Assembly: GCA_905480605.1 (NCBI GenBank)
Contig: CAJQRD010000023.1
Location: 1 to 64,000, forward strand
Length of the DNA stretch: 64,000 nt
DNA from: an uncultured Saprospiraceae bacterium
Lineage (GTDB): Bacteria > Bacteroidota > Bacteroidia > Chitinophagales > Saprospiraceae
Direction of reading: 5' to 3'
The translations under genes and the position numbers were made by a program. Positions within the stretch are counted from its first letter, which is position 1. Each line of letters opens with the position of its first letter. The notes below the pieces were generated by a model that was not told the DNA's origin, did not search any database, and saw nothing but the letters and a program-made list of their open reading frames with translations. Below, piece by piece: positions 6,037 through 24,988 of the stretch.

Positions 6037-9000
6037 ATGTCAAACAGATTGACAGTTCTGTTTATGGGGCTATGCACTTTACTTTTACCCACGACTGCTT
6101 TTAATCAAGATTGTGCTATAACAAGTGAGTTGACAATTGTTGCTGATGGTTCAAGCAATGTAATTTTAAATGTAGAAGGCCTCATTAACGATGATCTGGC
6201 AAACAATCAAACACTGTGTGGTGTCAGGCTTGTTTTTAAGCATGATTTGGTTGAAAATATTCGTATGACATTGGTTTCTCCTTCTGGTCAACGAGTGACC
6301 TTAGTAGGGCCAGGTAGGATAAATTCAGATCCATCTTTTGCTATCACTTGGAATGTGGCATTTGTTCCCTGCAGTGTACCTCCTTCACCAGATTCGGGAA
6401 TTTCTGGAGTTTGGGACAACGGAGAACCTTGGTCTACTTTCACAACATACACAGGCGTGTATCACCCATTTGATAATTGTCTTGAAGACTTTAATTTGGG
6501 GTCTGCAAATGGATCATGGACGCTTGAAATAGAGAACTTAGGTGATGTTGAGGGAATACTCCAGTTTTTTCAATTGATATTCTGCGACCCTGCAGGAAGT
6601 ATGTGTTCAGAATGTTTCCTTTTTGCAGGCAATTTTAACTTTACAACACCTGGTGGAATTTATTCATTTTGCGAAACGGATCCAATTTCTGATTTAATGG
6701 ATTTTAGATTAGATCAAGACTCTATACTTACAAGCAGCCAAGATTATACTTTTATTTACAGCCATAATGACTCAATTGTAAAATTTAGTGATTCACCCAA
6801 TGAGATATCGGATCTGATTCCAGGGATTTATAAGTTATGCGGTTTGGCATATCAATCCAGTATTGAAGATACTGTTTATCAACAAGAACTGCTGTCGCGA
6901 CTTGATTCCCTAATTGATGACAGATCCCTTTGTGCTGACTTAACTGAGGATTGTATCACACTTCGAATCTTGGAAATCGAAAACAAAATTACTATTGATA
7001 CAATTTTTTGTGATGGCGATTCAATCTCTTTTTTTGGAGAGACATTTTATGATGAAATAGATACAACTGTAATAATTTCAAATCTATTACAAGACAGATG
7101 TGATTCTTTAATTACTCTGTCAGCACGCAAAAGAATAGTCTCTTCAATTATTGACAATAATACCAATGTTTCCCAATGTGGGAGTTCAGTATTTTTGAAT
7201 GGAAATAACAGCAGTAGTAATCTAGGGCAAATTAACAATTATGAATGGTCAACAAATGATGGCAATTTCGAAATAAATATTGGCCCGATTGCTGAAGTCT
7301 CTTCTGGAGGCATCTATTATTTGACAACCCAATCCGAACAATGCTTTGCTTCGGATTCTATTGTTATACAGCAAATTGATACGTTTCAATGGAGTCTAAA
7401 TGTCGTTCCCCCTTTATGTTATTTAGATAGTTTTGTTTTAAATGTCAACAATGATCCTAGTAATGTAGATTTTATGTTTAGCGGACCAGCAGCTGTTGAA
7501 AGCATTGACAATATGTTGTTTTATACATTTACAGAAGGTACATATAAAATTGAAGCAAACCTTGGAACATGCAATGACAGCTTGGTTTTTATTTTAAATC
7601 ATGAGGCAACGGAATTGACTCTTGAAGTATCTTCTACTGTAATAACCTGTTTGGTGGATTCATCTGAAATTGTGATTAATACAAATGCCATAAATGCTGT
7701 TTTTGAATTGTCTGGACCTCAATCTGTAGTGACATCTTCAGATACTATCTTTAGTAGATTGAAAGGTATATACACAATAAAAGTTATTGATGAATTGGGT
7801 TGTGAGTTAATTCAATCGTTTACAATATTAGAAGAGCAGGATGATCCAGTTTTTGATGTACAAGATTTAAGTCATTTTTGCGATGAAGTTGTTCCAAATC
7901 TAGAAGCGCAAATTTCTTCACCCTTCGATTCAATATTGTGGAGAGGTCCCAATAGTTTTTCAAGTGATGACTTAATGGATTTTCCAATTGATGAGGGGAT
8001 CTATACCCTGACTGTTTTTGGGGTTAACGGCTGTACTTTATCAAAGTCAATTCTTTATACTATTAATAATGTTCCATTTCCTGTAGATATCACATATACA
8101 GATATTGATTGCGAAAATCAATCATCAGAAGTCTGCTACGATAATGGCAATAACCAACAAGTAAATTGGATGTTTAATAGTGAGACAATCTCTGAAAATA
8201 ATTGTTTTATGGCATTTGATCCAGGGAATTACATCCTAGAAGCTATTGATGATAATGGTTGTGTTGGGACAGATTCTGTTTTTATAAATGACCTGAGAAT
8301 TCCAATTGAAGTAAATCTGCGCACTGACCCTCAAACGAATATTTTGTCATGTAGCCAATCTTCAATTGTTATTGAAGCTGAAGTTATTGGAAGTCAAGCC
8401 AATCTCATTTATGATTGGGTTGAAGGCCCTAGCCTCATCAGCAATGATAATTCTATTACTGTTGATGAACCAACCGAGATAAAATTGGTTGTTACAGACA
8501 CTTTAACCAAATGTTTTTACGAAGAAATGATATCAATCATGGAAATTATTAATCCATTTGAAAATTTTGAAATAGATTTGGTACAGCCAGTTTGTAAAGA
8601 TGATTTCGGCAGTATCATTGAGATTTCACCCTTAAGTTTGGATGCTTATGATATCTTCCTAAACGGTAATTTGGTTATTAATAATGCACAATTGCAAATT
8701 TTGACTCCCGGTGATTATACACTTGAAATTATTGACGAAAATTCATGCCTCGCTGATACTGTATTTACAATAGAAAAAGGAAGAGAATTGACCTTGGATA
8801 TTGGTGAAGATGTGCAAACGGCCTTTGGCACTGAATTAACAATAGATGGGCAGCTGAATATAGATGAAAGTGATGTTGCAATTTATGAATGGAGTAACAA
8901 GGATTCTTTAAGCTGCATTAACTGTTTAACTCCTTCATTATCAGTGTATAGTAACGAAATTCTGATACTTGAAATAACCGATGATTTTGGATGTAAAGTG

Positions 9001-9403: not shown

Positions 9404-12400
9404 ATGATAAAGAACCTTTTACTCGTCTTATGCGTGACATTTGTGTCCGCTTCCATTTCATTTTCACAAGGTGAACTAAATTGTGATGATGCTGAATTAA
9501 ATGCTTTATGTGATATTGATGATATAGATGGGGTGGTTTTTACCAACCCAGATCCAGCCAATTCCGATGTGCCTTCAGATGCTCTTTGCACCGATGGAGG
9601 TGCTTTTCATAATCCAGGGTGGTTTTCTTTTGTTGCCGGTTCTACTGAAATTGAACTTTTGGTAACTCCTCTACCTATGATGTGTGATACTACTCCGGGT
9701 GGACTTACAGGAATCCAAGTTGCACTTTGGGAAGGTTGTCCCGGTGCAGGTGGAATGTGTGTCGCTGGTAATGCTGATTGTAATGATACGCCAATTACCT
9801 TAAATGCTGAAGATTTGGTAGTTGGAGAAACCTATAACCTCACAATTGATGGTTGTGGTGGTTCAATTTGTACTGTTTCTGTAGATATTACATCTGCTAC
9901 AGCATTTGCCTTGCCTGATTTAGATGACGTTGATGAAGAAGATGCAGAATATAACATTAGAGGTGGTTGTGATAATGCTTTGGGAGATGGTAATTTCTGT
10001 GCAGGTATTCCTGTCAACTTCTCAGTTGATGACGAATTTTACGAAACACTTGGTGCCCAATGGGAATGGAGTTTTACGGGACCCAATATAGGTGATATCG
10101 AATGGGATTTCGGTGCATTTTCTGGAGAAGGATCACCAGCGACAATTGGTGATGTTGATGGAGAAATGTTGGAAGGAAACGGTATAAATGTTGTTTTTCC
10201 AGATCCTGGAACATATACAATTTGTTTAAACAATGTTGAAACTTTTTGCGATAGAAATACTGAAGGTAAGCTAACATGGGAGATTAATATAATTCAACCA
10301 GGGTTGCAAGATTTTGGTGTCGTTTCAGTTTGTGCCTTGGATTTACTGGTAGGATGGGAGCCTGATTTTGAAGACGAAGATGGAAACCCATGGATTGCTG
10401 GACCAATAACTTTAGATCAAGTTGAAAATGCCAGCGATGGAATTATAAGCATTGAAACTCAAGATGATTGTGGATGCGATTTTGAACAAATGATTCAAGT
10501 AATAGTTGCAGGAACTATTGATAGAGAAGAAGTAGAGTTATACGTGTGGGAATGTATGATGCCATACACTTGGTATGATATAACATTCGATGAATTTGAC
10601 GACTTGCCTGTTGGCCAAGAAGAAGTATTAAGAGAGGGTTCTGCTGAAAGTGATTATGATGGAAATGTATGTGATAGTTTGGTTTCAATTACAATTATAC
10701 CCCTTACAATAGTTGACACTATTATTATTGGAGACTGTACTTCTTTAGGAACCGAATTTACTTTTGTTTTTACAGCATTAGATCCTGACGGTAATGATGT
10801 TACTATTACAAATCCAGTTATAGAATGGATTGACTCGACAAGTAATTCTGTTGTTGCAACAGGAGGTACTGCACTTTTGGAATCTGGTTCATACTATGTG
10901 GACTTCTTGGGATCTTTACAAGATCTCAATTACACAGATGATGAATTGGCAGGGATTACCTTAGATTCTGAATGTTCCCAGATATTTGGTCCTTTTGATC
11001 TCGTTGGTGGGTCCTCTACTTCACCAGAAATTCAACCATATCAAGAAGTCTATTGTGGTGACAATCTCAGTTTATTAACATTTACGCTTGACACTTTACC
11101 CGATACTGATTATACTTGGGTTATTCCACCTTCATATAATGTAATATTCCAATCGGAAGACAGTTTGGCTGTTAGTATTTCTACTTACGTTGAAACAGAT
11201 ACTTTATATGCTCAAGCAGCAAATGGATGTGGAACAAGTGACTCAATACCTTTACCAATATCTATTACTGATGGTCCAGATATTGATACTAATGGCGCAC
11301 CTAGCAATTGTGTAGGGTCAGAGCTTTTGGTAGGATACTCAGGATCAGCAGCAAATATTGCAACATATGCTTGGGATGTTACAGGTGGTAATATCACAAC
11401 TGGTGATGCAGCAAGTCAAAATATTGGCATCACTTATGACACACCTGGAATGTTCAGCTATACTCTTTTGGTAACAGATACGGAAGGATGTACTTCAATG
11501 GAATCTTATGATGTAGATATTGAAGCACCGCTTGAAAACCCTATGGTTACTTGTGATGGAGATCCGACAACAATTATATTTACTTGGGCAGATGTTACTG
11601 GGGCAACTTCATATGATATAAATGATGTCACACTACCAACTGGAGCAATAACTGACTTTGATGCAGTAAATAATACATATACAATTACAGGCATAAACCC
11701 TGGAGACCAAGCTACAATTCAAGTCATGTCTGTTGGGCCAACATCATGTGTTGAAATCCCTAATAACGTAACTTGTTCTGCTTCCTCATGTGATATTTCT
11801 GGGATTCAAGTTGTGAATTTCGAATCAATTGAAATATGTTTGGGAGACCCGGCCAATATGCCCATTCAATTTGAAATTACTTTACCGGCTAATTTTTCAG
11901 GCCTTTATACAGGAAGGGGTGTAGATCCATTTACTGGATTGTTTGATCCTAATTCTCCTGAAGTTATTGCAGGGACTTATGATATATCATTTGATTTTAC
12001 AGATGGTGGCGCTTGTGAAGGTATGTTCATGAGAACGCTCACCGTAAATGAAATACCATCAGCTGATATTGTACCTTCAGAGGCTGTTTTATGTGTAGGT
12101 GAAATAATCACTTTATCTGGTCCAGGCACTGTGGCAACATGGGATTTTGGTGCAGATGCTGTAGGTGACGAAACAGGTCTTTCTTATACAACACCTGGTA
12201 TCAAAATGGTGTCAGTAATGGTTGAAGATCCAACTTCTTTATGTTCTTCTGAAGGAATGATTGAATTGACAGTTAATGATGTTATTGAGGTACCAGTGAT
12301 CGTTTGTACACCTGGTACTGATAATATCCAATTTGATTGGCAAGATATAACAGGCGTAAGTGAGTTCGAAGTAAGTGTCAGTATAGGAGGTGGAACTCCG

Positions 12401-15121
12401 GAAGTAACTACTCAAACAAATTCTGATTTCAGTCAATTGGCTTTGAATGAAGGTGATATGGTTGAAATAATTGTTACAGCGGTTGCTGACAATGGCTGTA
12501 ATACAGAAATGGATACTGAATCTTGTCAAGCAAGAACTTGTGAAGTGCCTGTAATTGAATTATCTGCGACTCAACAAATCTTTTGTAGTAATGATGTGGT
12601 ATCAAATGCTGTAAATATTGTAATGCGTGTTGATGGTGCATCACCAGCTGATGGAACATTTACGATCGAAGGAGATGGTGTTACATTGGTTGGAACAAAT
12701 GCTACATTTGATCCAAATGGATTGGCAGCAGGGGATTATCTCGCTACTTTTACATACACAAATCCATCGGATATGTGTCAGACAGTAGATTTTATTGACT
12801 TTCAAGTGATTGTTGTTCCAGAACCAGCTATCGTTTTAGATAATGCCTCAATTTGTATCGATGAAGTGGTCACAGTAAACTTACCTCCTAAGCCTGACGA
12901 TGTCATAAGAAATATTAACAATTCAGATGGTATATTAAGTTTTATAAATCCAGATGAATTTACATTGGACTATGACATTCCTGGTGTTTTTAATATTGGC
13001 GTAACTTACGTAGTTGAAAATTGCCCTGAGGCATCAGTAACTGAGCAAGTTAATGTAAATGATACAATTCAAACACCTAACATTGTTTGTGTAAATGTAG
13101 ACACTGACTTTGTCGAATTCGGTTGGCAAGATCAAACTTTAGTGACCGAATATGAAATTTATATCGACGGTATTTTTGAAACAAATACTACAGATTCAGA
13201 TTTTAGAATAGACGGATTGTCGTCAGGAGAATCTGTAGATATCAGAGTAGTGGCGATTGACCCTATTTGTGGAAATAAAGAAAATATATTTACTTGTATG
13301 GCTCAAAGTTGTTTAGAACCAACGTGGACTTCTAATATTCCTGATGTGCAATGTTATACTCCAGGAAGTGGTCCAATTGTTCTTGATGTTGAAGCAATGA
13401 GTTTAACACCAAATTCAACTGGAACTTTATCATGGTTAGAACCTGAAGTTAATAGCAACAATGAATTTACACCAGGAACTGATACCCAAGAATATAACTT
13501 TACGGCTTTATTTACCGAAGGCAATTGTACTTCGCTTTTCCCGGTTACATTTACAATAAATGTTGAGCCAGTTGCCAATTTGGAATTGGTCGGGGAAAAT
13601 GTAATTTGTGTTGGAAGCTCAGTTTCAGTAGAAAGTATGTTTACCCCAGTAGCCAACGAGGAGGCTATTTGGGATTTTGATGGTGCCTCAGAATCCGGAA
13701 GTGGATTTGGTCCTTATCAAGTTACATTTGATACTCCAGGAACTTATAGGATTAGTGTTCTTGTTGATAACGAAGGCTGTCAAGGTCTTTCTGAGTCCGT
13801 AGAAATCACAGTTGAGCCAGAATTGGAAGCACCTGTCATAACATGTAACTCAACAGATATCAATTCAGTAGAGCTTTCATGGAGTTCAGTTGATTGTGCA
13901 GATGAATATGCTGTATTTGTAGGAGGTACTCAAGTAACAACAACCAGTAACTTAAATTTTACTGTCACAGGATTGACAGAGAATCAAGAAATAAATGTTT
14001 CAGTAGAAGCGATATCTGTCTGTGCTTGTAGCAATGTGATGTCACAAGATGTTTCTTGTACAACTAAACCATGTGACCCAACAACTTGGTCATTTTCTAG
14101 TAACGTGACTGATGAGTTTTGTTTAGATGGTTCAGTTCAATCATTTACAATAACTGCAACTCCTGATGATTTATCAGGAAACGGAACAGGTACTTGGTCA
14201 GGAGATCCTATCTCTAATGCAACGATAGGGGAGGTTGACCCAAGTTTAGTAGCAGCAGGTACATATGATGTTAATTATGCTTACGAAGAAGCTGGATGTT
14301 TTTATACAACTTCTGTTCAATTGACATTTGTTCCAGAACCTACTTTAGAATTGACAGCAATGGATCCTGCTTGTGCTATGGATGATGTGGGTTCTATTAC
14401 AGCAATTGGAATGGGAGGATCACCTGGGTATATGTTTGCAATTGATGGAGGATCATTACAATCATCTGGGGATTTCAGTAATTTGACTATTGGTACACAT
14501 ACAGTCGATATTGTTGATGCCAATGGTTGTGCAAATTCAGCTTCTATCTCAATTTTAGCTCCTGTAACTCCTAGTGTTACAATTCAGGGCGCCAATTCAG
14601 TTATAATTGATAATGACGCTATGTATACTATAGATATTCAAAACGCAGAAAATATTGAGAATATCATTTGGACAATTGCAGGTAATGTTGTCTGCAGTGG
14701 AGCGAATTGTTTGAACTACACTGTAATAGGCGCATCTCAGGATTTTGTTATAAATGTAGATGTCATTTATGATGGAGGTTGTATGGTCAGTGCTGCTGAG
14801 TTTGCTGTTAATGTAAAAGAAATTCAAGCTTTCTATATTCCCAATACCGTAGCATTGAACTCGGTTGATGGAAATGGTGAGTGGAAAATTTTCATCAAAG
14901 GCAGCGAAACGTTTCCAAAAAGTATCACTATATATGACAGATGGGGTAATTTAATGCATGAAGCTGTATTCAATTTAACCATGGGTGAAAAACAAGTTGT
15001 ACTCTGGGATGGAACATCCGATAATACAGAATTAGCTACTGGAGTCTATGTGTATGTTTTACAAATAGAAGTAGACGGCAGAAATGAAACTATTGGAGGA
15101 GATGTAACAATCTTGAGATAA
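9404..15121 (+). CDS. Giant T9SS type B-sorted surface protein with PKD and FN3-like repeats
   Basis: The product has 1905 residues. The signal peptide MIKNLLLVLCVTFVSASISFSQ supports the ATG at 9404. Residues about 22-165 form a module with GWFSFVAGS, GMCVAGNADC and TYNLTIDGCGG that recurs in the next gene. From about residue 700 the protein alternates FN3-like units (IVCTPGTDNIQFDWQDITGVSEFEV and relatives) with PKD-like units (ATWDFGADAVG...YTTPGIKMVSVMV). A SprB-type repeat (GGSPGYMFAIDGG...GTHTVDIVDANGC) and a module with IIWTIAGNVVCSG come next. The type B sorting domain (FYIPNTVALN...YDRWGNLM...WDGTSDN...GVYVYVLQ...GDVTILR) ends it. It is predicted to be exported by SecYEG, secreted by T9SS and anchored at the surface. 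PKD and FN3 modules point to adhesion; no enzyme domain was recognised. Confidence 0.92.
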   Translation: MIKNLLLVLCVTFVSASISFSQGELNCDDAELNALCDIDDIDGVVFTNPDPANSDVPSDALCTDGGAFHNPGWFSFVAGSTEIELLVTPLPMMCDTTPGGLTGIQVALWEGCPGAGGMCVAGNADCNDTPITLNAEDLVVGETYNLTIDGCGGSICTVSVDITSATAFALPDLDDVDEEDAEYNIRGGCDNALGDGNFCAGIPVNFSVDDEFYETLGAQWEWSFTGPNIGDIEWDFGAFSGEGSPATIGDVDGEMLEGNGINVVFPDPGTYTICLNNVETFCDRNTEGKLTWEINIIQPGLQDFGVVSVCALDLLVGWEPDFEDEDGNPWIAGPITLDQVENASDGIISIETQDDCGCDFEQMIQVIVAGTIDREEVELYVWECMMPYTWYDITFDEFDDLPVGQEEVLREGSAESDYDGNVCDSLVSITIIPLTIVDTIIIGDCTSLGTEFTFVFTALDPDGNDVTITNPVIEWIDSTSNSVVATGGTALLESGSYYVDFLGSLQDLNYTDDELAGITLDSECSQIFGPFDLVGGSSTSPEIQPYQEVYCGDNLSLLTFTLDTLPDTDYTWVIPPSYNVIFQSEDSLAVSISTYVETDTLYAQAANGCGTSDSIPLPISITDGPDIDTNGAPSNCVGSELLVGYSGSAANIATYAWDVTGGNITTGDAASQNIGITYDTPGMFSYTLLVTDTEGCTSMESYDVDIEAPLENPMVTCDGDPTTIIFTWADVTGATSYDINDVTLPTGAITDFDAVNNTYTITGINPGDQATIQVMSVGPTSCVEIPNNVTCSASSCDISGIQVVNFESIEICLGDPANMPIQFEITLPANFSGLYTGRGVDPFTGLFDPNSPEVIAGTYDISFDFTDGGACEGMFMRTLTVNEIPSADIVPSEAVLCVGEIITLSGPGTVATWDFGADAVGDETGLSYTTPGIKMVSVMVEDPTSLCSSEGMIELTVNDVIEVPVIVCTPGTDNIQFDWQDITGVSEFEVSVSIGGGTPEVTTQTNSDFSQLALNEGDMVEIIVTAVADNGCNTEMDTESCQARTCEVPVIELSATQQIFCSNDVVSNAVNIVMRVDGASPADGTFTIEGDGVTLVGTNATFDPNGLAAGDYLATFTYTNPSDMCQTVDFIDFQVIVVPEPAIVLDNASICIDEVVTVNLPPKPDDVIRNINNSDGILSFINPDEFTLDYDIPGVFNIGVTYVVENCPEASVTEQVNVNDTIQTPNIVCVNVDTDFVEFGWQDQTLVTEYEIYIDGIFETNTTDSDFRIDGLSSGESVDIRVVAIDPICGNKENIFTCMAQSCLEPTWTSNIPDVQCYTPGSGPIVLDVEAMSLTPNSTGTLSWLEPEVNSNNEFTPGTDTQEYNFTALFTEGNCTSLFPVTFTINVEPVANLELVGENVICVGSSVSVESMFTPVANEEAIWDFDGASESGSGFGPYQVTFDTPGTYRISVLVDNEGCQGLSESVEITVEPELEAPVITCNSTDINSVELSWSSVDCADEYAVFVGGTQVTTTSNLNFTVTGLTENQEINVSVEAISVCACSNVMSQDVSCTTKPCDPTTWSFSSNVTDEFCLDGSVQSFTITATPDDLSGNGTGTWSGDPISNATIGEVDPSLVAAGTYDVNYAYEEAGCFYTTSVQLTFVPEPTLELTAMDPACAMDDVGSITAIGMGGSPGYMFAIDGGSLQSSGDFSNLTIGTHTVDIVDANGCANSASISILAPVTPSVTIQGANSVIIDNDAMYTIDIQNAENIENIIWTIAGNVVCSGANCLNYTVIGASQDFVINVDVIYDGGCMVSAAEFAVNVKEIQAFYIPNTVALNSVDGNGEWKIFIKGSETFPKSITIYDRWGNLMHEAVFNLTMGEKQVVLWDGTSDNTELATGVYVYVLQIEVDGRNETIGGDVTILR

Positions 15122-15235: not shown

Positions 15236-18200
15236 ATGAAAAAACTTTACCTGATATTCTCATTAATTCTTGGGTTATTTGTAAACGAAAGTATAGCTCA
15301 GTTAACATTCGATACCGATCCTGTAAGTTTTACACTAGAATGTAACGATGATGACAACAACACCCAAATCGAAGATTATCTCAATGATCTTATCGCTATG
15401 GATGCTACATGTGCTAATGATCCTCTCATAACATGGGATTATTCAGATCCTGGTAATTTTGAAGACGGCGATGTCATAACAATTGAGATAATAGTTGAAG
15501 ATGACTGTGCTTCTTCTCCAGATTTGATTGTTCCAATTGATGTTACTATTGAAGATACTACAGCTCCAACTTTGGATGATGCGGCTGAGGATCTGACCGA
15601 GGCTTGTGATTTACCAAATAATGCAACGCTTCTTATGAACTGGGTTGATGATCATGCAGGGGCAACTTATTTGGACGATTGTAGTTCTGATGCTGAATTG
15701 ACTTGGTTTACAAATCCAGATCCAGTAGATATCAATGATATAGCTTTAGATTGTGGAGGTGATATAACAGTTGATTTTTGGGTTGAAGATGCTGCTGGTA
15801 ATTCTTCCACACCAACAACAGCAACATTTACATTAGAAGATACAGAAGATCCTTCTTTTAATGATGCAAATGGTTTGTGGGATATGGATTTTGAATGTGA
15901 TGGTGCTGGAAATATCGGTGATATTGCCTCACATATGGCAGATATTATTGCAGGATTAAATATATCAGATAATTGTACAGATGTGTCATTATTGATTTTG
16001 ACTGATAACTGGGATGGCGGTGGTTTTACTACCGCAGATTGTTCAGATACAGAAGCAGAAATTGAGGTAGAGTTTACACTCGAGGATGATTGTGGAAATA
16101 CAACAGTTTATACAGCAACATTTACTTTAATTGATACAACAGATCCAGAAGTAACTACGGCTGCAACGGATCTTGTATTAGAATGCGATGACGCAACCAA
16201 TGATACTGATATCCAAAATTGGTTGGATGCGGTTGGTAATGCGGTTTTTTCAGATATCTGTACCGATGCTCTTGACCTAATTATTGATAATGATTATGAT
16301 GGTTCTAAACCGGATTGTGATGGTAATACTGAGTTGGTAACTTTTACAATTACAGATTTATGTGGTAATGATATAGAGACCAGTGCTAATATAATTATAG
16401 ATGATACAATGCTACCAACAATTACTGGATTGGAAACAAGCCCAGCATCAATAGAATGTGTCAATGAAGTGATTACTAGCGAAGGTTTTGAAACATTAAT
16501 AAATAGCATAGTCGGTGCCGCTACATTAGAAGATGCCAATGATTGTACTGATCCATCTGATTTGATAATAATTATCACACCAGATCATACAACTCCTCCA
16601 GCTGGGGCAGATGTGCCAGATCCAGATTGTCCTGGTGGAACACTTACTGGACAGTATATTTTTGATGTTGTCATAGAAGATGAGTGTGGCAATCAATCAG
16701 CTTTAGAAACTATTACAATTACAGTTGAAGATACCACTGACCCACTTTTACCTGGTAATTTACCTGTCGATGAAACATACGATTGCGCTTCTGATATTCC
16801 TACTGGTATGGATATTTTTACGCCAGACGAATGTGAGTCACCAGCAGCTATTTTTGAAGAAGTTTATATTATAGAGAATTGTGATAATCAAGTTGAAATA
16901 GAACGAACTTGGATTTTTGAAGATTATTGTGGTAACTCAATAGGGGAGCATGTTCAAACTATTATTGTGGATGATCAAGATCCACCTGAATGGATTGGAG
17001 ATGAAGATGATTACTTACCTGGTGATATCAGTTTAGTTTTAGCAAATTGTGATGCTGGGTTTTCTTTTCCAAATGGAGTGTATGAAGATGAAGCCAATGG
17101 AGATATTTGGCCAATATATCCTCCAGCTGATGGATCTGAATTTGAAGACTTATGTCAACCTGTTACTTTCTCACAAATTGGACCACCTCCTACAGAACAA
17201 TTCGATGGTGGTGAAACATGTATCACTTTTATAGTTTCTGATGCTTGTGGCAATTCAATCACTCATGAGTTTTGTGTAGATATCATTTGCTCTAATTGTG
17301 AAGGTGGAGGTGTAGCTTGTGAACAGAGTTGTGGGACGGTGGAAGACGGATGTCATACATGTAATATTGAAGATTTATTAGATGGTTTTGAATCATGTAC
17401 ACCTAATTTTCAAGGAAGTGTTCTTGATTGGCCTCCATCATTATGTAATGGTAATGGTGTTCCACACAATATGTCATGGTTCTCATTTGTGGCAGGAAGT
17501 GCCGATCTTTGTGTCACAGTTGCACCTAATATGTGTGCAATGGGAACAGGAGCAGTTGGGCTTCAAGCTGGTGTTTATGATTTCTGCGAAGATGATGATG
17601 GAATGTGTTTAGCTGGTCAAGCTAACTGCTCTAACGGTTTGGATGAAATTGATTTCAGTTATAGTGAATTTGTTGTTGGTAATACATATTACATATTTGT
17701 GGATGGGTGTAATGGTGCAGAATGTGATTACGAAATTACCGTTGAAAAAGGTTTGGAGTTTGTACTTGATACGCCTGAAGAAGTTGTTGTTGAAGCATCA
17801 TGCGATCAAGTTATATCTTTTCCAGCTTTACAATTCTGCCCTCAAACTGAATTGACATTTAATATTTTTCATGAAGGAGATTCTCCTTCTGATCAAGGCG
17901 AGTATGATGATGCTGGACCTTATAATCCTGAACTTTCTGCTGAATTCTTTTGGACATTTAGTCCACCTATTCCTGGTATTGGAACTGATGGTTCATGGGA
18001 AACTGGTGAAGATGGAGAAGATGGGTTTCCAATTCCTCCAATAACATTCCCTAATGTAATGGTACCTACAACATGGACAATTTGTTTGACTGATATTGAA
18101 GCAGAGTGTTCAGATACAGAATGTGATGATTGTTGTTTAGATGTTGTTATTGCACCTTTACCTGATGAATTCTTTGGTCCTTATGAAGTTTGTGTTGAAG

Positions 18201-21200
18201 ATTTATTAGAGATAAATGGTTGGGATCCTGGTATAGTAGGAGAGGATCCTAATGGTGATGGAATAGAGTGGTTAGGTCCTGATAATATAATGTTAGAGCA
18301 AGTAGAGGATGCCATCAAAGATGACATGGGTATCATGACTTTTGAAGTTTTTGATCCAGAATGTGGTTGTATGTTTAATCAATCTCTGCAAATTATTCCA
18401 ATCGGAAACCTAGAACCTATAGAAGTTACTTTATATATGTTTGATTGCCAGTTCAGAGATGAAGATGGTGATCTTGATACCTATATTTGGGAATGGCCAG
18501 AGGATACTTATGAACTGAATGTGGATATGGAGGATTTCTTTTTGAATATTCCAGAAGGATCAGAAGTAAGAGATTGGGAAAATTCAAGATGTGATTCATT
18601 GCTATTGATAACTGTTGATACAGCTATTGTAGAAGGTATACTTACTCAAGGGCCATGTACCCCAGCAGGAACAGAATATTGTTTTGAGCTTTTGATTGAT
18701 CTTTTAGAAGATAATCACGATATGCATCCTACTATCAATCCAGATTATTTTGGTATGAAATGGGTAGATGCTGCTACTGGGTTTAATGCAGGTCAAGGAC
18801 CATGTTTTGCAGTAACACCTGGAACTTCTGGTAGTTATTTTGTTGAGCTAGAGTACAGTTTCATTGATGGAGCTTATGATGCTTCGCAGCAAGTCGTAGG
18901 AGAATGTACCAAAATTTTTGGACCGTTTGATTTAGATAGTGGTACAGCTTTACCGCCTGTAGTAACTGGTGAAAATACTTTTTGTGTAAATGATCTTAGT
19001 GGAAAGTTATTTAATGTTACAGATCCAATTGATGGGTATGTTTATTCCTGGACTTTCCAAGGTGGTGCAACAGGTTCAACTTTAAATGCACCAGCTAACG
19101 ATATGGCAGACATTGATTTTACAAATTATGACTTTGGTGGTAATTTACCAATGCTCGTAATCGCTGATACTCCTTGTGGAATTAGTGAAGCTTTTGAGGT
19201 TTTTGTGACCACAATACCTTTACCTGTGCCTGATTTTGCTGTATCTTCTCCTGTATGTGTTGGTCAATTGGCATCAGCAAACTTTACAGGAGATCAGAGT
19301 CAAATAAGCGAATATATATGGTCTTCGGATAACTTTAACAGTGGTAATCAAAGTGGTCCTGGACCTGTTGATTATAGTGCTTCTGTTGAGGGTACCTATG
19401 AAGTAAGTTTAATTATAGTAAACAATGAAGGTTGTCAATCTTTACCTGTAACCAGAACATTTGATGTTATTGCGCCATTACAAGCGCCAGTTATAGATTG
19501 TTCTGAGACTGCATCTTCCGTTGGATTCTCATGGGAAGCTATTGAAGGAGCAACAGGATATGATATTACAGTTTTACAGCACCCAACAGATCCGCCAGGA
19601 ACATTTATTGGCAATTCAGCTACTGAATTATCTGTAGACTTTACAGGACTTAGTGTTAACTCGATTGTTGAAATTTCTGTTGTTGCAACCGGAGGTCAAC
19701 CATGTGGTAATGGCCCTGCTGCTTCACTAGAATGTCAAGCACAGGATTGTCCTGATCCTGATTGGATATTTAATGTTTGGGCTGATACTTCTTTTTGTGT
19801 GAATGCATTGATTGATGCATACAGTTTTGACGTAAGTGGAGCAAATGGTACGGCATCATATGAAAGTGGTGTTCCTGGAGTTGTAGATGCTAATGGATTG
19901 ATTGATCCTTCTGCATTTCCAGTAGGTACAACTACAGTCACAATGATATATAACTATCAGAATGGAGATTGTGAAAGGTCTAGAAGTATAAATGTTGTAG
20001 TATTCCCTCAGCCTAGTGCTGATTTTACAGCTTCTGCAATGGAAGTGTGTTTAGGAGAATGCATAACAATTGATGATAGTAATGTTGATAACGTGGCGAC
20101 TTGGGATTATGGAGTTGACGGGTCAATTGATGCAAATGGACAAGTTTGTTGGACCAGTTCAGGAATGAAAACAATAGCAGTATCAGTAACAACACCAGAC
20201 TTAATAGGGTCTTGTGCAAATGCAAGTTCTATTGATGTTATGGTCTTAGATACTTTAATTATGGGCGAAATATCTTGTATAAATCAAGATCTTGATTTCG
20301 TTGAATTTGATTGGGGTGATGTTGTGGGTGCTACTGGTTATGATATCTCTTATACTATTAATGATATAACACCGCCTACTGAACTTAATATTACAGAGTC
20401 TACGATTTTGATTGATAATTTAATGCCAGATGATGAAGTAATTATTTCTGTAACTGCTTTAAGTCCAAATCAATGTAGTGATGTAACTAAAACTGCTGAG
20501 TGTGTTGCTATCAGCTGTGTTCCTTTAGTCTTTAATAATCCAGTTTGTGCTGAAGAAGGTATCGATTTCGTATTTTTTGAATGGGATGCCGTGGTTGGTG
20601 CAAGTATGTATGAAATTTCAATTAATGGTACGGTAGTTACTACTCAAGCTGAGCTCACATATTTGGTTGACGGATTGGATGCCGGAGATATTGTAACAAT
20701 TACAGTTACAGCACTAAACGATTTAACAAATTGTCCTGATGTTACAAGAACTAAAGATTGTACAGCTGGCGAATGTCCAGAAGGTACATTTACTTTTACA
20801 CCTGTTGATGAGCCTTGTTACAATGCTGCACTTGGTGGTATACAGTTAACGGATCCTACAATAGCTGGTGTATTGGGAACAGGAACAGGAAGTTGGAATT
20901 CTTCATTTGTAGATGCAAATGGTTTATTTACGCCAGATGCTGAAACAGATATGATTTACATGCTCGAATACGAATATGTTGAAGGTACTTGTACATACGA
21001 TGCAGAATTAGAAGTGGAAATAATCATAATTCCAATTGGTGATATTGATGTTTCTGATGATGATATATGTGTTACAGAATCTACAACTGTTGAAGGATCA
21101 AGTGAATTTGGAAACAATGAAACGGCTATTTGGGATTTCGGAAATGGTGTTAATGCTGTAGGAACTGGATTTGGACCCTATGAATTGACTTTCGATGCTC

Positions 21201-22597
21201 CTGGTACATATGAGATCACCTTAACTTTGGACAACGAAGGTTGTTTATCTGATCCTGTAGTAACGAGTATAGAAGTTGATGCAGAATTAATAACACCAGA
21301 AATCAATTGTTTGGCTTCAAACTCATCAGTTGAATGGAATTGGGACGATGTTGTAGGGGTAAACCAATATAGCATAAGTATAGATAATGTATTTCAAACA
21401 ACTCAAACTGAATCTAGCTTTAGAGTTGATGGATTATCAGAAGGTGAAAATATAGAAATAACAATTTCATTTATCAGTGACAGTTCTTGTCCAATAGAAG
21501 ATTTGGTTGATGTTTGTACAACAAATGCATGTCCAAATTCTACTTTTGATATCGGGGCTTTTGACAATGAAATTTGTTTGGATGGCTCTGAATCAAATAT
21601 ACAGTTAGAAATAGATGTGATAAATGCTCCTCCAGGTGAAACCGGTATGGGATCCTGGTCAGGACCTGGCGTATCTGCTTCTGGTTTATTTAATCCAACT
21701 GGATTGGTGGGTGTTCAAGAGTTAACTTATTCTATTGAATACAGTGTATGTCAGTATCAAACAAGTATTAATATAACAGTATTTGATGCACCACAGGTTA
21801 CAGCAATCAATCCAATTAACCCGGATTGTTATTTAACCCAAATCGGTGGAATTATGCCAGAAGTATCAGGAGGCACTGAGCCTTACATGTACACTGTAGA
21901 TAATTTACCTTCTCAAGATTTTCCTGCGTTTATAGATGTTTTAACCCCAGGTTTACATGATTTAATGGTTACAGATGCTAATGGTTGTACAACTGAACAA
22001 ACTATTGAAATCTTTGCAGCTGTTGAACCAACATTAGGAATTAATGGTCCTCTAAGTGTATTGGTTGGTGAAACTGGTGAATACACTTTAGATACAAATG
22101 CTGAAAACATAGGTGATGTTATCTGGTTGGCAAATGGTATTGTTATTTGTCAAGGTACGGATTGTGAACCTGTAAGTTTGATTTCAACATTATTCCCAGA
22201 TACGGACAATGTAGAATTGGTTGTGCAGGTATTCTTTAATGAAGACTGTTTTGTTGAAACATCAATTCGAGTTGACTTCTTTGAAATTCAGAAGTACTAC
22301 ATACCTAATGTAATATCTGAATTTGCAGAAGATCCCAATAATCAAGTATGGTCAATGTACACTAAAGGTGGTGCTATATTGGTGAAAACTGTTAAAATAT
22401 ATGATAGATGGGGTGAACTTGTTCATGATCAGGTAATAAATGAGCAAGCAGAAGGGCGTATTGATTTGCTTTGGGATGGTAGATGGACTGAAGATGGTGG
22501 ACCAGAAGTGATTCCAGGTGTTTATGTATATATGATAGAAATGGAAGTTGATGGCAGAGATGTTGTTGAATCTGGTGATATTACCGTGATACGATAA
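15236..22597 (+). CDS. Giant T9SS type B-sorted surface protein with HYR-like array, paralogue of the preceding gene
   Basis: The product has 2453 residues, the largest in the window. MKKLYLIFSLILGLFVNESIAQ is a clear signal peptide. Residues about 23-690 hold six or seven HYR-like units of roughly 100 residues, with boundaries such as EDTTAPTL, EDTEDPSF, IDTTDPEV, EDTTDPLL and DDQDPPEW and conserved DCGN/ECD cysteines. Residues about 720-850 repeat the module of the preceding gene (SWFSFVAGS, GMCLAGQANC, TYYIFVDGCNG). From there to the C-terminus the FN3-like/PKD alternation, SprB-type repeat, VIWLANGIVICQG module and sorting domain (YYIPNVISEF...YDRWGELV...WDGRW...GVYVYMIEM...GDITVIR) match the preceding protein in order. 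It is therefore that protein with an HYR array added at the front. HYR domains are associated with adhesion. Confidence 0.93.
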   Translation: MKKLYLIFSLILGLFVNESIAQLTFDTDPVSFTLECNDDDNNTQIEDYLNDLIAMDATCANDPLITWDYSDPGNFEDGDVITIEIIVEDDCASSPDLIVPIDVTIEDTTAPTLDDAAEDLTEACDLPNNATLLMNWVDDHAGATYLDDCSSDAELTWFTNPDPVDINDIALDCGGDITVDFWVEDAAGNSSTPTTATFTLEDTEDPSFNDANGLWDMDFECDGAGNIGDIASHMADIIAGLNISDNCTDVSLLILTDNWDGGGFTTADCSDTEAEIEVEFTLEDDCGNTTVYTATFTLIDTTDPEVTTAATDLVLECDDATNDTDIQNWLDAVGNAVFSDICTDALDLIIDNDYDGSKPDCDGNTELVTFTITDLCGNDIETSANIIIDDTMLPTITGLETSPASIECVNEVITSEGFETLINSIVGAATLEDANDCTDPSDLIIIITPDHTTPPAGADVPDPDCPGGTLTGQYIFDVVIEDECGNQSALETITITVEDTTDPLLPGNLPVDETYDCASDIPTGMDIFTPDECESPAAIFEEVYIIENCDNQVEIERTWIFEDYCGNSIGEHVQTIIVDDQDPPEWIGDEDDYLPGDISLVLANCDAGFSFPNGVYEDEANGDIWPIYPPADGSEFEDLCQPVTFSQIGPPPTEQFDGGETCITFIVSDACGNSITHEFCVDIICSNCEGGGVACEQSCGTVEDGCHTCNIEDLLDGFESCTPNFQGSVLDWPPSLCNGNGVPHNMSWFSFVAGSADLCVTVAPNMCAMGTGAVGLQAGVYDFCEDDDGMCLAGQANCSNGLDEIDFSYSEFVVGNTYYIFVDGCNGAECDYEITVEKGLEFVLDTPEEVVVEASCDQVISFPALQFCPQTELTFNIFHEGDSPSDQGEYDDAGPYNPELSAEFFWTFSPPIPGIGTDGSWETGEDGEDGFPIPPITFPNVMVPTTWTICLTDIEAECSDTECDDCCLDVVIAPLPDEFFGPYEVCVEDLLEINGWDPGIVGEDPNGDGIEWLGPDNIMLEQVEDAIKDDMGIMTFEVFDPECGCMFNQSLQIIPIGNLEPIEVTLYMFDCQFRDEDGDLDTYIWEWPEDTYELNVDMEDFFLNIPEGSEVRDWENSRCDSLLLITVDTAIVEGILTQGPCTPAGTEYCFELLIDLLEDNHDMHPTINPDYFGMKWVDAATGFNAGQGPCFAVTPGTSGSYFVELEYSFIDGAYDASQQVVGECTKIFGPFDLDSGTALPPVVTGENTFCVNDLSGKLFNVTDPIDGYVYSWTFQGGATGSTLNAPANDMADIDFTNYDFGGNLPMLVIADTPCGISEAFEVFVTTIPLPVPDFAVSSPVCVGQLASANFTGDQSQISEYIWSSDNFNSGNQSGPGPVDYSASVEGTYEVSLIIVNNEGCQSLPVTRTFDVIAPLQAPVIDCSETASSVGFSWEAIEGATGYDITVLQHPTDPPGTFIGNSATELSVDFTGLSVNSIVEISVVATGGQPCGNGPAASLECQAQDCPDPDWIFNVWADTSFCVNALIDAYSFDVSGANGTASYESGVPGVVDANGLIDPSAFPVGTTTVTMIYNYQNGDCERSRSINVVVFPQPSADFTASAMEVCLGECITIDDSNVDNVATWDYGVDGSIDANGQVCWTSSGMKTIAVSVTTPDLIGSCANASSIDVMVLDTLIMGEISCINQDLDFVEFDWGDVVGATGYDISYTINDITPPTELNITESTILIDNLMPDDEVIISVTALSPNQCSDVTKTAECVAISCVPLVFNNPVCAEEGIDFVFFEWDAVVGASMYEISINGTVVTTQAELTYLVDGLDAGDIVTITVTALNDLTNCPDVTRTKDCTAGECPEGTFTFTPVDEPCYNAALGGIQLTDPTIAGVLGTGTGSWNSSFVDANGLFTPDAETDMIYMLEYEYVEGTCTYDAELEVEIIIIPIGDIDVSDDDICVTESTTVEGSSEFGNNETAIWDFGNGVNAVGTGFGPYELTFDAPGTYEITLTLDNEGCLSDPVVTSIEVDAELITPEINCLASNSSVEWNWDDVVGVNQYSISIDNVFQTTQTESSFRVDGLSEGENIEITISFISDSSCPIEDLVDVCTTNACPNSTFDIGAFDNEICLDGSESNIQLEIDVINAPPGETGMGSWSGPGVSASGLFNPTGLVGVQELTYSIEYSVCQYQTSINITVFDAPQVTAINPINPDCYLTQIGGIMPEVSGGTEPYMYTVDNLPSQDFPAFIDVLTPGLHDLMVTDANGCTTEQTIEIFAAVEPTLGINGPLSVLVGETGEYTLDTNAENIGDVIWLANGIVICQGTDCEPVSLISTLFPDTDNVELVVQVFFNEDCFVETSIRVDFFEIQKYYIPNVISEFAEDPNNQVWSMYTKGGAILVKTVKIYDRWGELVHDQVINEQAEGRIDLLWDGRWTEDGGPEVIPGVYVYMIEMEVDGRDVVESGDITVIR
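15300..17290 (+). repeat. HYR-like repeat array inside the fourth surface protein
   Basis: Six to seven units of roughly 300 bases encode domains that start near D(T/D)T.P and contain a central ECD/NC and a late DxCGN motif. Examples of boundaries are EDTTAP (about base 15553), IDTTDP (about 16132) and EDTTDP (about 16732). The DNA copies are diverged, so the repeat is visible at protein level only. Confidence 0.65.
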
Positions 22598-23524: not shown

Positions 23525-23869
23525 ATGGCCAATTTTTTAATCGAAGAATTTAAAAAGTACAAAGTAACTTTATATAGCAATACAAAGAATAATCACGAAC
23601 TGTATGCAATACACTTAAAATTACCTTCTGGGGAGGCAATTTTAAAGTTTGGGGATGTAGCATTAGATGAAAATTCACATACTGAAACAGTAAACAATCG
23701 CAGTAAATATATCTTGCACTTTCATGCAAATAGATTTCCAGCGTTTATTGATATTTTAAGGAATGAAAAACCTTTGTTTTTTTATTTTAATATTGATTTA
23801 AACCAGGGTTATATAACAACATCTGATGAGCCTGTTGGCGAAGGAGAAATTGAACAAAAAGAGGATTAA
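23525..23869 (+). CDS. Conserved hypothetical small protein
   Basis: This is a 114-residue protein of a family I do not recognise. It has no signal peptide and no membrane segment, so it is probably cytoplasmic. The sequence is mixed alpha/beta with conserved-looking blocks (LKLPSGEAILKFGDVAL, KYILHFHANRFPAFIDILRNEKPLFFYF) and an acidic tail (GEGEIEQKED). ATG 23525 is preceded by AT-rich sequence without a Shine-Dalgarno. It sits between cmk and the desaturase gene on the same strand, with 126 and 93 base gaps. Even codon use and length support a real gene. Confidence 0.7.
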   Translation: MANFLIEEFKKYKVTLYSNTKNNHELYAIHLKLPSGEAILKFGDVALDENSHTETVNNRSKYILHFHANRFPAFIDILRNEKPLFFYFNIDLNQGYITTSDEPVGEGEIEQKED

Positions 23870-23962: not shown

Positions 23963-24988
23963 ATGTCTGACAAATCATTGGATTTTAAGTACAGCAATGG
24001 TGAAGAACCACATATTCAACGTACAAAAGATATAATTCGAAAGTACCCTGAAATTAAGAAATTAATGGGAAGGTACCCGAAAACCTTTTTATATGCATTT
24101 TTTGTGGTTGCATTACAATTAGCAATCGCTTATATCCTTAGAGATCAAGCTTGGTGGATGGTGTTGATTGCAGCGTATGGTGTGGGAGCATTTGCAAATC
24201 ATGCTTTGTTCGTGTTGATTCATGAGTTTACACACAATATGGTGTTTAAAAGTAAGGTCGCCAATTTATGGGGAGGAATTATGTGTGACCTTCCTAACGC
24301 TTTTCCAAGTTCTGCTGCGTTCAGAAAATATCACCTTAAGCATCATGCATTTCAAGGGCACTATGATATTGATGCGGACTTGGCAAGTAAATGGGAAGCC
24401 AAACTGATAGGTTCTAACTTTATTGGTAAATCATTTTGGTTGCTATTTTTTCCATTGTTTCAAGCAGTAAGGCCACCAAGATTGAAAGAAATCAAGTTCC
24501 AAAGTTCTTGGATATGGGTTAATCTATTAACTGTGTTAGCTTTTGATGTTGTTGTTTATATGATAGCTGGTCCAATGGCTATTCTATACTTTGTAGCTTC
24601 ATTTTTCTTTTCAGTTGGTTTACACCCTCTAGGAGCGAGATGGATACAAGAGCATTTCTTGGTTGCTCCTCCTCAAGAAACATACAGTTATTATGGACCA
24701 CTAAATTACTTGGCATTTAATGTTGGATACCATAATGAACATCATGACTTCGCTTACGTACCGTGGGTTAATTTACCTAAAATTAGAGAAATAGCGCCTG
24801 AGTATTATAACAATTTGGTTTATCATAAATCTTGGACCAAATTATGGTTGAAGTTTATTTTTGATAATGAATTGTCGCTCTTTTCAAGAATATTAAGAAG
24901 TGACAAAGGAGGATTAGAAGTAAGTTCAGATTCTGAAAATGATTACTTCAGAGGAAGAGATCAAAAAGAAAACATAGCTATAAATTAA
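23963..24988 (+). CDS. Membrane fatty acid/sphingolipid desaturase, DES1 (delta-4 dihydroceramide desaturase)-like
   Basis: This 341-residue integral membrane di-iron desaturase has three histidine boxes: HEFTHN (residues 87-92), HLKHH (124-128) and HNEHHDF (257-263). Their spacing and surrounding sequence resemble eukaryotic sphingolipid delta-4 desaturase DES1. The N-terminal block YPEIKKLM, the NHALFVLIHE and HPLGARWIQEHF segments, and ETYSYYGPLNYLAFNVGYHNEHHDF all correspond to DES1 blocks as I know them. Family members introduce the 4,5-trans double bond of ceramide using O2 and cytochrome b5-type electrons. Several hydrophobic segments (about 44-60, 68-86, 170-190, 198-225) fit an inner-membrane enzyme. 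Bacteroidota make dihydroceramides, so a sphingoid substrate is plausible but inferred; an acyl-lipid desaturase is the alternative. No serine palmitoyltransferase gene lies in the window. Confidence 0.85.
   Translation: MSDKSLDFKYSNGEEPHIQRTKDIIRKYPEIKKLMGRYPKTFLYAFFVVALQLAIAYILRDQAWWMVLIAAYGVGAFANHALFVLIHEFTHNMVFKSKVANLWGGIMCDLPNAFPSSAAFRKYHLKHHAFQGHYDIDADLASKWEAKLIGSNFIGKSFWLLFFPLFQAVRPPRLKEIKFQSSWIWVNLLTVLAFDVVVYMIAGPMAILYFVASFFFSVGLHPLGARWIQEHFLVAPPQETYSYYGPLNYLAFNVGYHNEHHDFAYVPWVNLPKIREIAPEYYNNLVYHKSWTKLWLKFIFDNELSLFSRILRSDKGGLEVSSDSENDYFRGRDQKENIAIN

What the first reader, a model, noticed from the sequence alone, without database searches (positions are those of the whole stretch)
23963..24988. 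Bacterial desaturase that looks like eukaryotic sphingolipid delta-4 desaturase (DES1)
The protein is colinear with DES1: histidine boxes at residues 87, 124 and 257 sit close to where I recall them in the human enzyme (about 89, 128, 259). Several non-box blocks also match (YPEIKKLM, HPLGARWIQEHF, ETYSYYGPLNYLAFNVGYHNEHHDF). Bacterial sphingolipids are usually saturated dihydroceramides, so a delta-4 desaturase would give true ceramides with a trans 4,5 double bond. A transfer from a eukaryote, or an ancient bacterial origin of the family, are both possible.
Basis: partly seen in the sequence, partly recalled or inferred. Interest (0 to 1): 0.75.

Follow-up and report, generated by a model that had tools for sequence, protein, structure and literature searches.

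The report
Bacterial relative of the ceramide desaturase
This bacterium carries a membrane enzyme from the same family as the one that makes true ceramides in animals and plants, together with the gene that starts sphingolipid synthesis, which suggests that some bacteria may also make unsaturated ceramide-like lipids.

Summary
Window 23963-24988 encodes an intact 341-residue membrane desaturase with histidine boxes at residues 87, 124 and 257. The bacterial Lipid_DES proteins I collected form two groups: a small one (HP..GHFISEHY) that joins DES1 with full support, and a larger one (R and W in HPLGARWIQEHF) that holds the window gene. The host has serine palmitoyltransferase (SPT) and no detected cysteate acyltransferase. 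In 60 genomes (own and relatives), 18 of 20 with the desaturase have an SPT-type gene, against 3 of 40 without it; at 90% completeness or more, 12 of 12 against 2 of 33. I conclude: a di-iron enzyme that modifies long-chain bases, most likely a delta-4 desaturase, from a bacterial sister group of DES1 seen in records of several phyla. The reaction is unproven; a hydroxylase remains possible. Recent transfer from a eukaryote is not supported.

The parts
23963..24988 (+). Lipid_DES-type membrane di-iron desaturase gene (341 aa)
23981..24079 (+). Lipid_DES N-terminal domain (residues 7-39)
   Evidence: PF08557, 48.5 bits; same place in the six-frame genome search
24152..24826 (+). FA_desaturase domain (residues 64-288)
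   Evidence: PF00487, 97.6 bits
24221..24235 (+). histidine box 1, HEFTH (87-91)
   Evidence: both His invariant in alignments A1 and A2
24332..24346 (+). histidine box 2, HLKHH (124-128)
   Evidence: His 124, 127, 128 invariant in A1 and A2
24623..24658 (+). group mark HPLGARWIQEHF (221-232): R226 and W227 in 116 of 116 group A rows; H and F in 9 of 9 rows of group B plus recalled DES1
24731..24745 (+). histidine box 3, HNEHH (257-261)
   Evidence: His 257, 260, 261 invariant in A1 and A2
23525..23869 (+). upstream 114-aa ORF, no Pfam or NCBIfam match; not shown to belong to the function
   Evidence: homologues in 5 of 80 named DES loci

Best explanation
The gene encodes a membrane di-iron desaturase of a bacterial sister group of eukaryotic DES1 that acts on long-chain-base lipids. 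In this host SPT condenses serine with an acyl thioester to a 3-ketosphingoid base; the base is reduced and N-acylated (candidate acyltransferase: the GNAT gene beside SPT); the window enzyme then most likely removes hydrogens at C4 and C5 of the resulting dihydroceramide (or dihydrosphingoid base) to give a sphingosine-type 4,5 double bond. Shown here: gene, domains, conserved histidines, phylogenetic group, SPT in the genome, co-occurrence with SPT-type genes in relatives. Inferred: substrate class and the role of the GNAT. Inferred from the DES1 family alone: position, type and geometry of the reaction.
For: Lipid_DES and FA_desaturase over their curated cut-offs. 47 residues kept in at least 97% of 116 group A rows and in 9 of 9 group B and recalled DES1 rows, including the eight box histidines, H221 and H231. 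SPT in the own genome: NF047600 678.9 bits, cut-off 640; best PDB matches are serine palmitoyltransferases 3a2b/8guh, 519 bits, against 250-253 bits for 7u7h and 28eh, which are the two that a cysteate-type enzyme, L058, matches at 593-596 bits (28eh is named Cysteate-C-fatty acyltransferase). No cysteate acyltransferase at E <= 1e-100 in the own genome. Co-occurrence in 60 genomes (own included; SPT-type gene at E <= 1e-120): 18 of 20 with the desaturase, 3 of 40 without, Fisher p 2e-10; by genus 6 of 7 against 2 of 39, p 2e-5; genomes at least 90% complete 12 of 12 against 2 of 33; with the curated SPT cut-off alone 13 of 20 against 3 of 40, p 5e-6. Own class in the phylum sample, curated cut-off: 9 of 15 against 9 of 83, p 9e-5. 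In a Kiritimatiellae record a group A homologue follows a GNAT gene, related to the one beside SPT, and an epimerase-type reductase gene (L113). A model with mean pLDDT 87.5 has the fold of membrane di-iron AlkB.
Against: The six neighbouring genes that I scanned are not sphingolipid genes. In 80 named loci (flanks up to 8 kb) SPT and cysteate acyltransferase homologues lie near the desaturase in none, the GNAT in one, the PAP2 in one. In the 18 genomes with both genes, mostly drafts, desaturase and SPT share a contig in none. The window enzyme lies outside the DES1 plus group B clade and differs from it at R226, W227, Q229 and W268, so the reaction could differ. 6 of 15 desaturase genomes of the own class have no SPT over the cut-off, only a cysteate acyltransferase. 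G008 and G032 (78% and 89% complete) have the desaturase and no SPT-type gene. Of 16 named desaturase hosts, 2 show only a KBL or BioF with the SPT model and 2 an unassigned relative; one of the two without is the L113 host. One paper says that Saprospiraceae do not possess sphingophospholipids (PMC5167729, passage). No lipid data.
Confidence: 0.6

Rival explanations
1. It modifies the same lipids but as a hydroxylase: C4 hydroxylation of the base (as DES2 does, recalled) or 2-hydroxylation of the N-acyl chain.
For: Membrane di-iron enzymes switch between desaturation and hydroxylation (recalled). In Caulobacter a DesA-family desaturase/hydroxylase, CC_0202, is reported to hydroxylate the amide-linked acyl chain of sphingolipids (PMC11324152, passage). 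Bacteroidota sphingolipids are mostly described as saturated (recalled).
Against: The control genome Caulobacter vibrioides rings for FA_desaturase but not for Lipid_DES, so the acyl hydroxylase reported there probably carries no Lipid_DES domain (CC_0202 itself was not scanned). Most characterised Lipid_DES enzymes are delta-4 desaturases (recalled).
Confidence: 0.22
2. It acts on cysteate-derived capnoid bases (sulfonolipids) in general, and on serine-derived bases only where those replace them; the reaction would be the 4,5 unsaturation of some sulfonolipids (RIF-2 and flavocristamide A, structures recalled and not confirmed from any call).
For: The six desaturase genomes of the own class without SPT over the cut-off have a cysteate acyltransferase. 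A group A homologue occurs in a Cyclobacteriaceae record whose only match to the SPT model at E <= 1e-90 is a KBL (L131).
Against: In the 60 genomes the desaturase goes with SPT and against cysteate acyltransferase: 5 of 20 against 28 of 40, p 0.002. The window's own genome has no detected cysteate acyltransferase. All 98 own-class genomes of the phylum sample have one of the two synthases, so the presence of one there says little.
Confidence: 0.12
3. It is an ordinary acyl-lipid or acyl-CoA desaturase of membrane fatty acids.
For: FA_desaturase domain; the fold is shared with AlkB and, more weakly, SCD1.
Against: The same genome has two other FA_desaturase genes that I read as acyl type (L164, L166) and that it does not match at E <= 10; Lipid_DES domain; co-occurrence with SPT.
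Confidence: 0.06

Closest known systems
Eukaryotic sphingolipid delta-4 desaturase DES1/DEGS1 (Pfam PF08557 + PF00487)
   Same: Both domains (domain content of DES1 recalled), three histidine boxes at nearly the same positions, 47 shared conserved residues, host with SPT
   Different: 37-41% identity to recalled rows; outside the DES1 plus group B clade; ARWIQEH in place of GHFI[SA]EH; reaction not tested
Bacterial group B Lipid_DES proteins (L003, L010, L014-L017)
   Same: Same family; the three hosts looked at (G018, G050, G248) have SPT-type genes of 467-569 bits, below the curated cut-off
   Different: 41.7-50.5% identical to recalled DES1 and joined to it (100/100); 39-42% to the window protein
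Caulobacter CC_0202 DesA-family sphingolipid acyl hydroxylase (PMC11324152, passage)
   Same: Bacterial membrane desaturase/hydroxylase reported to act on sphingolipids
   Different: No Lipid_DES gene rings in the Caulobacter control genome
AlkB alkane monooxygenase and stearoyl-CoA desaturase SCD1
   Different: 12% and 8% identity; other substrates (recalled)

Membership tests
Pfam Lipid_DES family (PF08557) | N-terminal Lipid_DES domain over the curated cut-off, followed by FA_desaturase | tested here: met
   48.5 bits, cut-off 23; 97.6 bits, cut-off 29.7
Pfam Lipid_DES family (PF08557) | Three histidine boxes HxxxH, HxxHH, HxxHH in family spacing | tested here: met
   87, 124, 257; spacing compared with recalled DES1 rows
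DES1 orthologue (sphingolipid delta-4 desaturase proper) | Falls inside the clade of eukaryotic DES1 to the exclusion of other bacterial groups | tested here: not met
DES1 orthologue (sphingolipid delta-4 desaturase proper) | HP.[SA]GHFI[SA]EHY block (as in the recalled rows) | tested here: not met
   HPLGARWIQEHF
DES1 orthologue (sphingolipid delta-4 desaturase proper) | Introduces a trans 4,5 double bond in dihydroceramide | not testable with these tools
   needs an enzyme assay or lipidomics
Sphingolipid pathway enzyme (any) | Host has SPT | tested here: met
   NF047600 678.9 bits, cut-off 640
Sphingolipid pathway enzyme (any) | Gene co-occurs with SPT in relatives | tested here: met
   18 of 20 against 3 of 40; 13 of 20 against 3 of 40 with the curated cut-off
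Sphingolipid pathway enzyme (any) | Gene lies beside other sphingolipid genes | tested here: inconclusive
   only in L113 with GNAT and reductase, and a PAP2 gene within 3 kb in L130, of 80 loci; none among the scanned neighbours in the window

The most novel reading that the evidence does not exclude
The Lipid_DES family is at root a bacterial family of long-chain-base delta-4 desaturases, seen in records of Bacteroidota, Ignavibacteria, KSB1, Leptospiraceae, Gemmatimonadota, Kiritimatiellae and others and serving sphingolipids as well as sulfonolipids; true 4-unsaturated ceramides are thus made by many bacteria, and eukaryotic DES1 descends from, or shares an ancestor with, bacterial group B.
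Probability: 0.35. Interest if true: 0.8.

Novelty: new variant of a known kind. Interest (0 to 1): 0.58.

Why it matters
The 4,5 double bond separates dihydroceramide from ceramide and matters for signalling in animals (recalled). A bacterial sister group of DES1 that goes with SPT makes the question directly testable, offers a candidate gene for unsaturated bases in sulfonolipids, and bears on the origin of eukaryotic ceramide synthesis.

Full report
What is there. The window's ORF at 23963-24988 (+) is intact and encodes 341 residues. It stands alone: the upstream 114-aa ORF ends 93 bases before it, and the next gene runs the other way. Scanned neighbours are a cytidylate kinase, the 114-aa ORF (no match), a TPMT-like methyltransferase, a MiaE-like protein, an ORF without a match and a DAC-domain protein; none is a sphingolipid gene. 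The rest of the window was not scanned for families. The protein carries Lipid_DES (residues 7-39, 48.5 bits) and FA_desaturase (64-288, 97.6 bits), both over their curated cut-offs. Lipid_DES rings once in the own genome and in 0 of 14 control genomes.

Host. The nearest named relative is a Saprospiraceae MAG, 84% identical (L060). Its genome gives the same SPT place (C49:25363-26535) as G006, a genome of the window's own genus, so the window most likely comes from an uncultured Saprospiraceae genus.

Relation to DES1. The window protein is 36.7, 36.9 and 40.9% identical to them; six group B bacterial proteins are 41.7-50.5%. In two trees (53 rows with two other desaturases of the own genome as outgroup, 51 without) eukaryotic DES1 joins group B with 100/100 support and the window lies in the other group; holding the window's Saprospiraceae rows together with the eukaryotes costs 101.5 log-likelihood units, AU p 0.0003 (the group was named after the first tree). 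Six positions separate group A from B plus DES1, among them R226, W227, Q229 and W268; 47 are shared, including the eight box histidines, H221 and H231 (116 group A rows, some near-identical or from one genome twice). That H221 or H231 binds metal is my inference.

Distribution. Lipid_DES genes occur in 40 of 395 sampled genomes of the phylum and in 20 of 60 genomes of the relatives sample, the own genome counted in both. Named group A homologues come from records labelled Saprospiraceae, Melioribacter and other Ignavibacteria, Chitinophagales, Mucilaginibacter, Cyclobacteriaceae, KSB1, Gemmatimonadota, Leptospiraceae, Dadabacteria and Kiritimatiellae (the best 80 of 582 confirmed places, itself a capped list). 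Most are MAGs, where stray contigs are possible.

Host pathway. The own genome has SPT (678.9 bits, cut-off 640; PDB serine palmitoyltransferase 519 bits), preceded by a PAP2 protein related to phosphoinositol dihydroceramide synthase (233.8 bits, below its cut-off of 480) and followed by a GNAT acyltransferase. In Caulobacter, spt, an acyltransferase (bcerS) and a reductase (cerR) are the key genes of sphingolipid synthesis (PMC11087976, abstract and a passage); that the GNAT here is such an acyltransferase is inference. No cysteate acyltransferase was found at E <= 1e-100, so serine-derived bases are the likely substrate here.

Co-occurrence. In the 60 genomes the desaturase and an SPT-type gene (E <= 1e-120) are found together in 18, desaturase alone in 2, SPT alone in 3, neither in 37 (p 2e-10). 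By genus: 6 of 7 against 2 of 39 (p 2e-5); without the window's genus 5 of 6 against 2 of 39 (p 1e-4); group A genera alone 4 of 5 against 2 of 39 (p 5e-4, groups). Genomes at least 90% complete: 12 of 12 against 2 of 33; curated SPT cut-off alone: 13 of 20 against 3 of 40. Cysteate acyltransferase goes the other way: 5 of 20 against 28 of 40 (p 0.002). In the own class of the phylum sample (98 genomes, counted from the listing) it is 9 of 15 against 9 of 83 (p 9e-5), five of the first nine from one genus; the other 6 of the 15 have only a cysteate acyltransferase. These tests do not correct fully for shared ancestry.

Physical linkage is weak: desaturase and SPT share a contig in none of the 18 genomes with both, mostly drafts. 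The one clear cluster is in a Kiritimatiellae record (L113): a GNAT related to the SPT-linked GNAT (257.6 bits), an epimerase-type reductase, then the desaturase (homology from about 8001, first ATG at 8061). That genome gave no SPT by this model at E <= 1e-90, only a BioF, which weakens the argument.

Verdict. A real, intact member of the DES1 family, in a bacterial sister group with its own block, in a host that has the first sphingolipid enzyme. The substrate class is well supported by co-occurrence; the delta-4 reaction is the best guess and untested. Of papers I saw search listings, abstracts or found passages only, never a whole text.

Noticed in passing
window 9404-15121 and 15236-22597: Two very large adjacent ORFs (1905 and 2453 aa) with similar C-terminal ends (IYDRWG... 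GD[VI]T[IV][LI]R), which look like the sorting ends of secreted Bacteroidota proteins (recalled, not tested).
   Followed up: no
L164, L166, L167 (own genome C4, C27, C45): Three further FA_desaturase genes of the own genome without a Lipid_DES match; I read two as acyl-type and L167 as AlkB-like, untested.
   Followed up: partly
own family: Of 23 other genera of the family (one genome each), 11 have cysteate acyltransferase and no SPT-type gene, 5 have an SPT-type gene (2 of them both), 7 neither; the window's genus has SPT in 13 of 14 genomes and cysteate acyltransferase in 5 of 14. This looks like a switch between sulfonolipid and sphingolipid synthesis.
   Followed up: partly
other classes of the phylum: An SPT relative below NCBI's cut-off (526 bits at best) is near universal outside the own class (280 of 297 genomes). 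In 2 Melioribacter, 2 of 3 KSB1 and 1 Gemmatimonadota locus such a relative has the GNAT of the SPT operon in the same locus, so it may be a second SPT type.
   Followed up: partly
window 23525-23869: 114-aa ORF without any Pfam or NCBIfam match, with homologues in 5 of 80 named desaturase loci, all labelled Saprospiraceae.
   Followed up: no
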